From Yersinia bercovieri ATCC 43970 (GTDB lineage Bacteria; Pseudomonadota; Gammaproteobacteria; Enterobacterales; Enterobacteriaceae), in assembly GCF_013282745.1 (NCBI RefSeq), contig NZ_CP054044.1, forward strand, positions 1,426,001 to 1,490,000: a DNA stretch of 64,000 nucleotides, written 5' to 3'. Made by a program: the position numbers and the translations under genes. Within the stretch, counting starts at the first letter, position 1. Every line of letters begins with the position of its first letter. Below are positions 2,858 to 10,460 of the stretch, piece by piece. The notes beneath the pieces were generated by a model. That model had not been told where the DNA came from, ran no database searches, and saw only the letters and a program-made list of their open reading frames with translations.

Positions 2858-4597
<1,740 letters not shown>

Positions 4598-6117: not shown

Positions 6118-7302
6118 CTACAGGATAAGCCCCACAACGGCAGCGGAAAGCAAGCTGACTAATGTTGAACCATATACCAGTTTTAACCCAAAGCGTGAAA
6201 CCACATTACCCTGTTTTTCATTAAGCCCCTTAATGGCACCTGCCACTATTCCAATAGAGGCAAAATTGGCAAAAGAGACCAAAAACACAGAAAGAATACC
6301 TAAGCCACGTGGAGACATTTCAGCTGCAACCTTTTTCAACTCAATCATGGCAACAAATTCATTAGCAACCAGTTTGGTCGCCATAATACTCCCAGCCTGC
6401 AAGGCATCTTGAGCAGGGATACCAATCAGAAACGCCAGTGGATAAAATAGATATCCCAGCACGCCTTGGAAGCTAATCTGGAATAAGCTACTAAATAAAG
6501 CATTAATAGCAGAAATGATGGCAATAAACCCGATTAACATTGCAGCTATAATCATCGCGATTTTAAATCCAGCCAGGATATATTCTCCCAACATTTCAAA
6601 AAAACTTTGGTCTTCATGAAGCTTGTTGAGCTTTAATTCGGGTTCTTCAATGGCTTGGTAAGGGTTAATAATAGAAAGAACAATAAATGTACTAAACATA
6701 TTCAATATTAGTGCCGTCACCACAAATTTCGGTTCGAGCATGGTCATATAAGCACTTACAATTGACATGGATACTGTCGACATCGCTGTCGCCGCCATGG
6801 TGTACATTCTGCGCGGCGATATATCAGCAATAATTCCTTTGTAGGCAATAAAATTCTCTGACTGCCCTAGAATCAATGTGCTCACGGCATTAAAAGATTC
6901 TAGTTTACCCATCCCATTAACTTTGGACAGCAATGTACCGACCACCCGAATGATGAGTGGTAATATGCGAAAATGCTGCAAAATTCCAATCAATGCGGAA
7001 ACGAAAATGATTGGGCAAAGAACATTCAAGAATATAAAGGCTAACCCTTGTTCATTCATGTTGCCAAAAACAAAGCTGGTGCCGACTGCGGCAAATTTCA
7101 TCAACACTTCGAATAATCCAGCAAAATACGTGATCGCGCCCAAGCCACTTTCTGAGTGTAAAAAGAAATAAGCGAGGGCGATCTCTATAATCAGTAATTG
7201 AAAAATATAACGCAGTCTAATGCTTTTCCGGTCACGGCTAGCCAGTAATGCCAGTATTGCAATAGTCATCAACGCCAGAAGAAAATGCAGAATTTGCAAC
7301 AT
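6118..7302 (-). CDS. nupC: NupC-type concentrative nucleoside:H+ symporter
   Basis: This 394-residue inner-membrane protein imports nucleosides with protons. It matches E. coli NupC (400 residues) almost end to end: [60 protein letters not shown] and a C-terminal [19 protein letters not shown]. The ATG at 7302 gives the usual N-terminus. There are many hydrophobic segments and no signal peptide, as expected for the CNT family. The gene is divergent from rpfF, and a perfect palindrome sits between them at 7502-7517. A second nupC-like gene could exist elsewhere in the genome, so the symbol marks the family as much as strict orthology. Confidence 0.9.
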
Positions 7303-7501
7303 AATAAGTCCGTTAGGGATAAAATTCAGCTAGCATTTTATCTGCAATAACAGATTTTTTTCATCTGAAATTCAACCCTCCTGAAAATATATATTCTACG
7401 CATCGCATAGCTGTATCCCAAAAATTTCGAGAGCTGAAAATTTTACTGCTTTTCCATCATTTATTCATTGAGTGGCTCACTATTTATCTGCCAGCTTAAA
7501 T

Positions 7502-7517
7502 TGTCGCGATTGCGACA
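7502..7517. promoter_or_regulatory. Palindrome in the nupC/rpfF divergent region, candidate operator
   Basis: TGTCGC and GCGACA are perfect 6-base arms around GATT. The site lies 79 bases before the probable rpfF start and about 200 before the nupC start. No known regulator was matched; calling it an operator is inference from symmetry and position. Confidence 0.4.
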
Positions 7518-7595
7518 TGTTTAGCGCTTCCTCAAGGAGGCTCAGGCTCAAAAGTACTCTTGGTGTTCAACTAACTCATTGGATGGAATATGAAT

Positions 7596-8455
7596 ATGAT
7601 TAATCTGCCTAGCTGCCGCCCTTTTAGCGAAGCCGGCCATTTATCTCAAATATCGGCCTATTATGAAGAGGAGCGCAATATCATGTGGATGTTGTTGCGT
7701 GCTCATCCGCGTCCCTGTTTTAACTTAGAGTTAATTGAAAATATTATGACGTTGGCACAGGCCGCTAAAGAGTCAAAATTACCTTTTGATTTTTGGGTGA
7801 CCGGCTCAGTTGTACCCAATATGTTTAATGTGGGAGGTGATTTAAGCTTTTTTGCACAAATGATTCGCAGTCGTAAACGTGAAGCATTAATGGCCTATGC
7901 GCGCGCTTGTGTAGATTGTGTTCATGGAGCTTCTCGCGGGTTTGATACTGGCGCAATATCTATTGCAATGATTGAAGGCAGTGCATTAGGGGGGGATTTG
8001 AAGCCGCACTGGCCCATCATTTTGTTCTAGCACAAACAACCGCCAGAATGGGTTTTCCGGAAATTGCTTTTAACCTATTCCCTGGCATGGGAGGTTATTC
8101 GCTTGTCGCGAGAAAAGCGGGAATGCGAGTGGCTGAACAGCTGATTTGGACCGGCGAACCCCATGCTGCTGAATGGTATGAGAGTCGTGGGTTAGTGGAT
8201 AAATTATTTCAACCGGGCGATGCGTATCTTGCGACTCGCACTTTTATAGATACGATAAGACCTAAGCTAAATGGTATAAGAGCCATGATTAGGGTCCGGC
8301 AGCGTGTTTTGCAATTAACACGTTCTGAACTAATGGATATTACTGAGGATTGGGTTGATTCTGCATTCTCTATTGAGCCAAAAGATATCGCCTATATTGA
8401 ACGTTTGGTTATGCTACAAGATCGCCATACTTCGACAATGCCAAAAGCAATATAG
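7596..8455 (+). pseudogene. rpfF: RpfF-like DSF synthase (crotonase family), one-base frame break in a G7 run
   Basis: RpfF enzymes make cis-2-unsaturated fatty-acid signals (DSF family) from acyl-ACP. Two frames together give a crotonase-fold protein of about 286 residues, the family length. Frame one runs from 7596 (or ATG 7590) to a TAG at 8028. The other frame continues from 7994 to 8455. The break lies in seven G at 7989-7995. One more G, or a -1 slip there, gives ALGGGFEAALAHH followed by ARMGFPE, which hold the two glutamates equivalent to Xanthomonas RpfF Glu141 and Glu161. Without a shift both are lost from the first fragment. ATG 7596 is preferred because GATGGA lies eight bases upstream. 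The intact gene rpfR follows tail to tail ten bases away. This could be true inactivation, a phase-variable tract, recoding or a sequence error. Confidence 0.8.
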
Positions 8456-8465
8456 TTTTTGGCAC

Positions 8466-10460
8466 CTAATCCAGTAAAAGGTGAGGGTGCTGTGTTACCA
8501 GCCAATGCTCCAGTTCATCTGCGGGCATTGGTTTAGCGTAAAGAAATCCCTGTTTTTCATCAATGCCAATAGAGTCCAAAAACTCCTCTTCTCCTGTCGT
8601 CTCTACCCCTTCGGCAATAACCCGCATTTTAAGGGCTTCGGCAACAACGATAATGGCCCGAACCAGAGATTGTGAAATAGGATTATTATCAATGCCGCGC
8701 ACAAAGCTTTGGTCCAGCTTAATGGCATCAATTGGGATACGTGCTAATTGAGAAAGGGAAGAGTAGCCTGTACCGAAATCATCCAAATGAACTTGAGCCC
8801 CTAAGTGGCGCAACTGCTTCATGATGTTAATAGCGGCATCTTCGTCATCTATTAAGCAACTTTCGGTGAGTTCCACATCAACTAAGCTAGACTCCAGATC
8901 GCTGGCTTCAAGAGATTCAATAAAACTGGTTACGATCGCCTCGTCAATTAATTGCCGGGCAGAGACATTTACTGCCACCCGCAGATTAATTCCTCGACTC
9001 TTCCAATCAACTGCTTGCTGCATTGACGTTTGCAGAACCCATTTACCTAGTGGCCCTATTAGTCCAGACTCTTCTGCATATGAGATAAACTCTAGAGGCG
9101 CGATTAAGCCGCGTTCAGGCGATAGCCATCGGACTAATGCTTCGACACTATGTACTTTACCGGTTTGCGTGGATATTTTTGGTTGGTAAAACACTTGCAG
9201 CTGATGCTGTTCTAAACCTTTGCGCAAATTAGTATCTAGCCAAACATATTCAGATACTTTTTTATTCATCTCTTGCGAAAAGATTGAATAGGTTCGTTTG
9301 CCATGTTCTTTCGCGGTATACATGGCCGTGTCCGCACTGCGGATAATATTTTCCAATGTATCGCCATGCTCAGGGCATAATGCAATGCCAATAGAGCAGC
9401 CGGTATATACCTCGATCAATCCCACTCTAAAAGGTAATTTCATGCGGTTGAGAATACGCTGTGTGGTTGCCTCCAGTTCATTCAGGCAGGAATTCTCGAC
9501 CAGCACAATAAACTCATCGCCGCCCAACCGGGCCAGCATTTCGTTTTCCTCTAAACAACTCAAAATAGCCAGCGAGACATCTTTGAGTAACCGGTCACCA
9601 AACATGTGCCCGTAATGGTCATTCACTTTTTTAAAGTTATCGAGATCGAGGTAAATAATACCCACCGAGGTATCACCGCGAGTTTGGATCGCGCTATTAA
9701 TCCGTTCATGAATCGCATGGCGATTAGGTAAGCCAGTAATCATGTCGGTATTAGCTAAAATCCTGAGGCGCTCTTGGGCACGCCGCTCTTTGGTAATATC
9801 AGTACCAGAGCAGATGAGATAACGTTCATTTTTTCCACTGCCGCTGTGAACAAATTTATTGCGGAATAAAAAGAGGCGTTTCCCTTTTACTGTATTAACC
9901 CAACGTTCAACTTCATAAGACGCGCCGCGTTGGAAGAAGCCTTCAATATTTTTCCGCGATGACGCCCCCTCTTTGGCTGTCATAAATAAGTCATAAACAT
10001 TTTTGCCAATAACATCTTGCTCTTTTTTGCCGGTATATTCTTCGCTGAGGTGATTAAAACGTTGGACGTAGCCATCTTTATCGAGAATAACGATAACTGA
10101 ATTCGCTTCGGAAACGACCTGCTCTGCAAAGGAGAGTCCCATGACTAAATCGCGAGCGACAGATTCAGTATCAGCATAGGCGGAGGCTGTTCCTCCCCAC
10201 TCTTTGCTATTAATTTTTCGGCCGACAAGGTGTAAATGGAGTGGATGACCATAAATCTCAATTTCTACATCTAAGCTGGCAGTAATTCCGGTTAAGCTGC
10301 GGATTTTCATTGTTTGAACTGAATTAAGGGGAATCGCAATATTGGTCGTCCCTTTAATCGCAGCTAACTCTAAAGCTTGGCTGTCAAAAGCAAGTCGCCA
10401 AAAAGGGCTATGAGTACCAAAATAGGTATTGAGGATCGATGTGTCTTGGTCTTCGAACAT
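8466..10460 (-). CDS. rpfR: RpfR/PdeR, DSF-responsive c-di-GMP protein (FI-PAS-GGDEF-EAL)
   Basis: RpfR binds BDSF through its PAS domain and adjusts c-di-GMP turnover; its N-terminal FI domain binds RpfF in Burkholderia and Cronobacter. The 664-residue product is close to E. coli PdeR (Gmr/YciR) along its whole length. Domains by residue: FI about 1-100, with HLVGRKINSKEWGG near 77-90; PAS about 110-230; GGDEF with intact GGDEF at 313-317; and EAL with EAL at 440-442 and DDFGTGYSSL. Both catalytic motifs look complete, so it may make and break c-di-GMP. No RxxD inhibition site stands before GGDEF. ATG at 10460 has GGGGGAT upstream. It is convergent with the broken rpfF gene. Confidence 0.93.
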   Translation of the reverse strand: MFEDQDTSILNTYFGTHSPFWRLAFDSQALELAAIKGTTNIAIPLNSVQTMKIRSLTGITASLDVEIEIYGHPLHLHLVGRKINSKEWGGTASAYADTESVARDLVMGLSFAEQVVSEANSVIVILDKDGYVQRFNHLSEEYTGKKEQDVIGKNVYDLFMTAKEGASSRKNIEGFFQRGASYEVERWVNTVKGKRLFLFRNKFVHSGSGKNERYLICSGTDITKERRAQERLRILANTDMITGLPNRHAIHERINSAIQTRGDTSVGIIYLDLDNFKKVNDHYGHMFGDRLLKDVSLAILSCLEENEMLARLGGDEFIVLVENSCLNELEATTQRILNRMKLPFRVGLIEVYTGCSIGIALCPEHGDTLENIIRSADTAMYTAKEHGKRTYSIFSQEMNKKVSEYVWLDTNLRKGLEQHQLQVFYQPKISTQTGKVHSVEALVRWLSPERGLIAPLEFISYAEESGLIGPLGKWVLQTSMQQAVDWKSRGINLRVAVNVSARQLIDEAIVTSFIESLEASDLESSLVDVELTESCLIDDEDAAINIMKQLRHLGAQVHLDDFGTGYSSLSQLARIPIDAIKLDQSFVRGIDNNPISQSLVRAIIVVAEALKMRVIAEGVETTGEEEFLDSIGIDEKQGFLYAKPMPADELEHWLVTQHPHLLLD

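What the first reader, a model, noticed from the sequence alone, without database searches (positions are those of the whole stretch)
7989..7995. G7 run splits a DSF-synthase gene; a -1 slip rebuilds the catalytic motif exactly
The two reading frames of the RpfF-like gene meet at seven G. Reading with one more G, or slipping back one base on the run, gives ALGGGFE and then GFPE, the two catalytic glutamate motifs of DSF synthases. Outside this point the gene looks undamaged, unlike an old pseudogene. Four explanations fit: sequence error, recent inactivation, phase variation of the tract, or recoding (ribosomal -1 slip, or transcriptional slippage adding one G). Phase-variable or recoded control of a quorum signal would be new for this group as far as I know.
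Basis: partly seen in the sequence, partly recalled or inferred. Interest (0 to 1): 0.78.

Follow-up and report, generated by a model that had tools for sequence, protein, structure and literature searches.

The report
Likely miscounted G run in rpfF
A quorum-signal gene in this Yersinia genome looks cut in two at a run of seven Gs, but the same assembly also cuts an indispensable gene at another such run, so the break is most likely a sequencing error and not a new genetic switch.

Summary
An rpfF-type gene at 7590-8455 changes frame at G7 (7989-7995), and both sides are otherwise undamaged. The genome is a Yersinia near Y. aleksiciae. 23 of 25 genus genomes hold the gene: the own copy is split, the 22 others are open through. 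The run is not conserved (longest G run 2 to 8 in those 22).

The deciding evidence lies elsewhere in the assembly. Of 89 sampled G/C runs of seven or more, six sit at a confirmed frame break: rpfF, alaS, glycerate 2-kinase, lysophospholipase L2, a TonB-dependent siderophore receptor and a translocon protein. The same scan of Y. aleksiciae flagged 0 of 87. All six shift in one sense. alaS has no second copy here and is one open frame in the 24 other genomes. It is listed as core essential in Enterobacteriaceae (PMC11481867, passage), so its assembled sequence can hardly be literal. mutS and mutL are open.

Miscounted G runs are therefore the best explanation. True recent inactivation of rpfF stays possible. 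Nothing found favours phase variation or recoding. Raw reads would settle it.

The parts
7590..7988 (+). Upstream piece of rpfF (133 codons before the run)
   Evidence: NF006452 profile 4-136; 22 of 22 other genus genomes with the gene are open through
7989..7995 (+). G7 run where the frame changes
   Evidence: Sequence; the only G/C run of seven or more in the window
7997..8455 (+). Downstream piece of rpfF in the neighbouring frame, with GFE and GFPE
   Evidence: NF006452 profile 140-288 and PF00378; tblastn with the intact relative
8466..10460 (-). Convergent rpfR/pdeR-type gene, PAS-GGDEF-EAL, 664 aa, open
   Evidence: NF007474, 1172 bits against cut-off 782; PAS, GGDEF and EAL in Pfam; 98% to Y. 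aleksiciae
6118..7302 (-). Neighbouring NupC-type nucleoside transporter
   Evidence: PF07662, PF01773, PF07670; TIGR00804 at 408.3 bits, under its cut-off of 442

Best explanation
The gene is an ordinary Yersinia rpfF (BDSF-type synthase) beside its receptor gene rpfR, and the frame break at G7 is most likely an assembly error: the length of the G run was miscounted. Shown: this assembly has several frame breaks at G runs, all of one sense; one falls in alaS, of which there is no second copy and which the cell needs whole; a near relative scanned in the same way shows none. Inferred: that the rpfF break is of the same class. If so, the strain makes a normal RpfF, expected from the family to release a cis-2-unsaturated fatty acid that RpfR senses to lower c-di-GMP.
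For: Of 89 sampled G/C runs of seven or more in the own genome, six lie at confirmed frame breaks (rpfF; siderophore receptor; alaS, glycerate 2-kinase, lysophospholipase L2 and translocon protein), against 0 of 87 flagged in Y. aleksiciae. envZ breaks at a run of six. These seven all shift in the same sense. alaS is two pieces in the own genome and one open frame of 880-881 aa in 24 of 24 others; it is listed as core essential (PMC11481867, passage). rpfF is open in 22 of 22 other genus genomes that hold it and shows no relaxed selection. mutS and mutL are open. Homopolymer miscounts that break reading frames are well described for long-read assemblies (PMC8011154, PMC12007338, passages).
Against: Most sampled runs of seven or more inside genes are intact in this assembly (37 or 38), so a run of seven is not always miscounted. 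Apart from alaS, the other broken genes could be truly broken, and so could rpfF. One break, in an aspartate racemase, is not at a G run, so real pseudogenes or other errors exist too. A protein-database sequence from another Yersinia-like source, P0188, also changes frame at the same glycine codons, which may mean a real hot spot as well as a common error. The sequencing method is unknown to me and no reads were seen.
Confidence: 0.85

Rival explanations
1. Recent true inactivation: a replication slip at the G run silenced rpfF in this strain, perhaps in culture, leaving rpfR without its own signal.
For: G runs are prone to slips; the flanks are intact, as in a recent event. The locus can be lost: 2 of 25 genus genomes give no match to rpfF and no full-length match to rpfR. 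Truncated Yersinia RpfF pieces with other ends are in the protein database.
Against: The same kind of break occurs in alaS in this assembly, and all confirmed breaks at G runs share one sense. mutS and mutL are open.
Confidence: 0.1
2. Phase variation: the run length differs between cells and switches signal synthesis on and off.
For: Three of 22 relatives carry a run of eight G in the same codons with an open frame, so long runs do arise here; P0188 shows a frame change at the same codons.
Against: The run is not conserved: the longest G run is 2 or 3 in 11 of 22 relatives. Runs this long are common in the genome (256 overlapping matches to seven G). No second allele of the own species was available to compare.
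Confidence: 0.03
3. Recoding: ribosomes or RNA polymerase slip on the run and make the full-length enzyme from the assembled sequence.
For: The two open frames overlap at the run. If the assembled alaS were literal, some such process would have to act there too.
Against: The site is not conserved in 22 relatives. The RNA after it folds no better than shuffles (z-score 0.09) and has no Rfam match up to E 0.1. By my inspection it is no tandem slippery heptamer (pattern recalled).
Confidence: 0.02

Closest known systems
RpfF of Burkholderia cenocepacia (PDB 5fus, 6dgn) with receptor RpfR
   Same: The intact Yersinia relative matches 6dgn over residues 4-284 (E 3e-134). rpfF and rpfR are convergent, as drawn in PMC6361424 (passage).
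   Different: The window copy is split in the assembly. No enzyme activity was tested.
Homopolymer miscount in a genome assembly (systematic indel errors of long-read assemblies, PMC8011154 and PMC12007338)
   Same: Frame breaks at homopolymers, of one sense, in otherwise conserved genes, an essential one included.
   Different: The sequencing method of this genome is unknown to me, and no reads could be inspected.
Phase-variable poly-G genes (known from other bacteria; recalled)
   Same: A G run inside a coding frame, with a change of frame.
   Different: No evidence of two run lengths in one species; the run is not conserved among relatives.

Membership tests
BDSF-type synthase RpfF (Burkholderia/Cronobacter kind) | Family match over the whole length, as two pieces | tested here: met
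   NF006452 at profile 4-136 (159.6 bits, under the cut-off of 177) and 140-288 (221.6 bits, over it), pieces apart; the intact relative scores 411.5
BDSF-type synthase RpfF (Burkholderia/Cronobacter kind) | rpfR-type PAS-GGDEF-EAL gene beside it | tested here: met
   8466-10460, convergent
BDSF-type synthase RpfF (Burkholderia/Cronobacter kind) | One uninterrupted reading frame | tested here: not met
   Split in this assembly; open in 22 of 22 other genus genomes with the gene
BDSF-type synthase RpfF (Burkholderia/Cronobacter kind) | Makes a DSF-type signal | not testable with these tools
   Needs culture chemistry
RpfF equivalog model NF053515 (diffusible signal factor synthase RpfF) | Score over the curated cut-off of 550 bits | tested here: not met
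   Pieces 64.2 and 97.9 bits; the intact relative 189.9
Assembly homopolymer error | Further frame breaks at homopolymers in the same assembly, more than in a near relative | tested here: met
   6 of 89 confirmed against 0 of 87 flagged
Assembly homopolymer error | A break in a gene that the cell cannot lose | tested here: met
   alaS split in the own genome only, 1 of 25; core essential in Enterobacteriaceae (PMC11481867, passage; Yersinia belongs to a sister family, recalled)
Assembly homopolymer error | Reads disagree with the assembled run length | not testable with these tools
   No reads are held
Phase-variable tract | Different run lengths within one strain or species | not testable with these tools
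   One genome per species is held and no reads
Phase-variable tract | Run kept in relatives | tested here: not met
   Longest G run 2 to 8 in 22 relatives; none has seven, three have eight
Programmed frameshift | Stimulating structure after the site | tested here: not met
   z-score 0.09 for 90 bases after the run; pseudoknots not modelled; no Rfam match
Programmed frameshift | Conserved site in relatives | tested here: not met
   The frame is open without any shift in 22 of 22 relatives

The most novel reading that the evidence does not exclude
The assembly is literally right at every G run. This Yersinia then carries real frame breaks at G runs in rpfF, alaS and several other genes, and its RNA polymerase or ribosome slips at such runs often enough to make the full-length proteins, the alanyl-tRNA synthetase it cannot live without among them.
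Probability: 0.02. Interest if true: 0.85.

Novelty: not a real feature. Interest (0 to 1): 0.08.

Why it matters
A real break would mean a switchable or recoded quorum signal. As it stands, the value is a caution and a simple test: a gene split at a homopolymer should first be compared with how the same assembly treats other such runs, above all in genes the cell must keep. Here that test turns an attractive story into a probable sequencing error and marks this reference assembly as unsafe for pseudogene claims at G/C runs.

Tried and rejected
Old pseudogene: rejected. Both pieces are under strong purifying selection; dN/dS is at most 0.061 against the 19 relatives measured. Three of the 22 relatives (L015, L018, L020) were not picked up by the script's start-motif filter and dropped from that count.

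Recoding signal: the 90 bases after the run fold no better than shuffles, and 7300-8700 has no Rfam match up to E 0.1.

Mutator strain as the cause of many real slips: mutS and mutL each give one open match over the cut-off. Other repair genes were not checked.

The same broken allele in other sequences: the 146-aa upstream ORF gave 77 proteins and the 135-aa downstream ORF 115. No row is more than 98% identical to either query, so the window's own broken products were not seen in another source. The database is clustered at 90%, however, and lists only proteins of similar length. Other truncated Yersinia-like pieces are there (P0144, P0147, P0188, P0198, P0205).

The frame scan is imperfect. 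The stricter form flagged five of 89 runs and the looser six. In both, one flag (L158) is the normal boundary of cysN and cysC. The stricter form missed the lysophospholipase, and both missed rpfF; these two are confirmed by family hits. Runs called non-coding were not checked one by one, so breaks may be missed in either genome. The Fisher test (6 against 39, and 0 against 46; p 0.012) used 39 intact runs where the scans give 37 or 38, and it includes rpfF, the run that prompted it. It is a guide only. Long A/T runs were no help: 24 of 24 in the own sample were non-coding.

The species of the window was named by no call; the genus and the nearest relative are supported. That G002 is Y. aleksiciae follows from equal contig length and coordinates. 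My notebook entry calls the L106 gene an adhesin; one search shows a TonB-dependent siderophore receptor. No structure was predicted, since a fold of the whole protein would have needed a mend.

Full report
WHAT IS THERE. The window lies in a two-contig genome of 4.40 Mb of the genus Yersinia. The nearest named relative is Y. aleksiciae, 98% identical over the first 133 residues. At 7590-8455 there is a crotonase-family gene of the RpfF kind. Its frame changes at seven G, 7989-7995. The two sides, searched apart, match NF006452 at consecutive positions, 4-136 and 140-288. Convergent to it lies an open PAS-GGDEF-EAL gene of the RpfR/PdeR kind, 8466-10460, the arrangement described for rpfF and rpfR in PMC6361424 (passage). 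That Yersinia holds the pair is already in print (PMC4698668, passage). By NCBIfam the protein is of the broader family NF006452; neither the pieces nor the intact relative reach the cut-off of the narrower RpfF model NF053515.

THE GENE IN THE GENUS. Of 25 genomes searched, 23 hold the gene: the own copy with an open frame of 151 aa, the 22 others with 289-363 aa and no stop inside. The two that lack it give no full-length match to rpfR, and their best match to the neighbouring transporter is the 73-74% kind that the own genome carries elsewhere. The G run has no conserved length: the longest run in these codons is 2 in eight relatives, 3 in three, 5 in six, 6 in two and 8 in three. Against the nearest relative dN/dS is 0.026 upstream and 0.017 downstream, and it is at most 0.061 against the 19 relatives measured of 22. 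Intact copies are the rule, and the window's copy shows no decay besides this one break.

IS THE RUN LENGTH TO BE TRUSTED? I aligned the window and nine 20-kb stretches of the own genome with matching stretches of Y. aleksiciae: 203,951 aligned bases, 168,000 of them in reference ORFs, keeping only matches of at least 500 bases and 80% identity. Ten reference ORFs were followed up with tblastn. Candidates whose shifts cancel within a gene were left, and one 50-base difference in L102 was not followed. Frame changes inside a gene: rpfF; a 758-aa TonB-dependent siderophore receptor, again at a G7 run; an aspartate/glutamate racemase, not at a G run; and a 114-aa ORF. The first 22 residues of a 497-aa protein also lie in another frame, which I set aside as a difference of start. 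The other five read in one frame, one of them with a stop inside.

I then took 60 stretches around listed G-run places of the own genome (one search counts 256 overlapping matches to seven G and lists 100) and 60 from Y. aleksiciae, and scanned them with the stretches already held. The own sample has 89 runs of seven or more G or C, the relative's 87. The stricter scan gave 37 intact, 5 broken and 47 non-coding or gene ends in the own genome, against 46, 0 and 41 in the relative. The looser scan gave 38, 6 and 45, against 49, 0 and 38. Family searches with pieces apart confirm breaks at the run in alaS (TIGR00344), glycerate 2-kinase (NF007668), lysophospholipase L2 (NF008019) and a type III translocon protein (NF011889); one flagged run, L158, is the ordinary boundary of cysN and cysC. 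Adding the siderophore receptor, which both scans flagged, and rpfF, which both scored too weakly to flag, gives 6 of 89 confirmed in the own genome against 0 of 87 flagged in the relative. Leaving out rpfF, which prompted the test, it is 5 of 88. One more break, in envZ, lies at a run of six (1 of 93 such runs flagged, against 0 of 75 in the relative). The seven breaks, rpfF and envZ included, shift in the same sense.

THE DECISIVE GENE. alaS encodes alanyl-tRNA synthetase and is listed among core essential genes of Enterobacteriaceae (PMC11481867, passage). In 24 of 25 genus genomes it is one open frame of 880-881 aa. In the own genome alone it is two pieces, profile 1-171 and 172-847, in different frames that meet at a G7 run, with no other match. 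Read literally, such a cell should not live. Either the assembly miscounts some G runs, or the cell corrects them in expression. The first is simpler and well documented for long-read assemblies (PMC8011154, PMC12007338, passages), though how this genome was sequenced is unknown to me. A mutator is not indicated, since mutS and mutL are open.

AGAINST THIS READING. Most sampled coding runs are intact (37 or 38). Only alaS is a gene whose break is hard to accept as real. One break is not at a G run. A database protein of another Yersinia-like source (P0188) changes frame at the same glycine codons; its origin is unknown, and it could mark a real hot spot or the same kind of error.

CONCLUSION. 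I take the rpfF break to be an assembly error (0.85). Shown: frame breaks at G runs are frequent in this assembly, at six of about 44 sampled coding runs of seven or more, and one of them cannot well be real. Inferred: that rpfF belongs with them. Rivals: recent true inactivation 0.10, phase variation 0.03, recoding 0.02. As to print: searches for rpfF with phase variation (3 papers; one opened, passages; two seen as listing) and for rpfF, RpfR and frameshift (1 paper, listing only) showed me no report of a frame-broken or variable rpfF; the papers were not read whole, and the library holds open-licence papers only.

Noticed in passing
L159:1421-4044 (own genome, run at G000:C1:2368173-2368179): alaS, otherwise one open frame in 24 of 24 other genus genomes, is split at a G7 run in the own assembly.
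   Followed up: yes
L146:1512-2656, L144:1576-2609, L145:1081-2543, L106:12901-15191: Glycerate 2-kinase, lysophospholipase L2, a type III translocon protein and a TonB-dependent siderophore receptor each change frame at a G run of seven or nine in the own assembly.
   Followed up: yes
L136:2330-3672 (minus strand): envZ changes frame at a run of six.
   Followed up: partly
L108:8989-9677: An aspartate/glutamate racemase changes frame at a place that is not a G run; a real pseudogene or another kind of error.
   Followed up: partly
L102 near 4100-4118: A 114-aa ORF of the relative lies in two frames in the own genome.
   Followed up: no
genomes G006 and G022: Both lack rpfF, a full-length rpfR match and the close copy of the neighbouring transporter, as if the whole locus were gone.
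   Followed up: partly
proteins P0144, P0147, P0188, P0198, P0205: Truncated Yersinia-like RpfF pieces from other sources; P0188 changes frame at the same glycine codons as the window, and the longest contig listed for it has the same length as that for the downstream piece P0205.
   Followed up: partly
G000 contig C2: The second contig of the assembly is 73,927 bases, possibly a plasmid.
   Followed up: no
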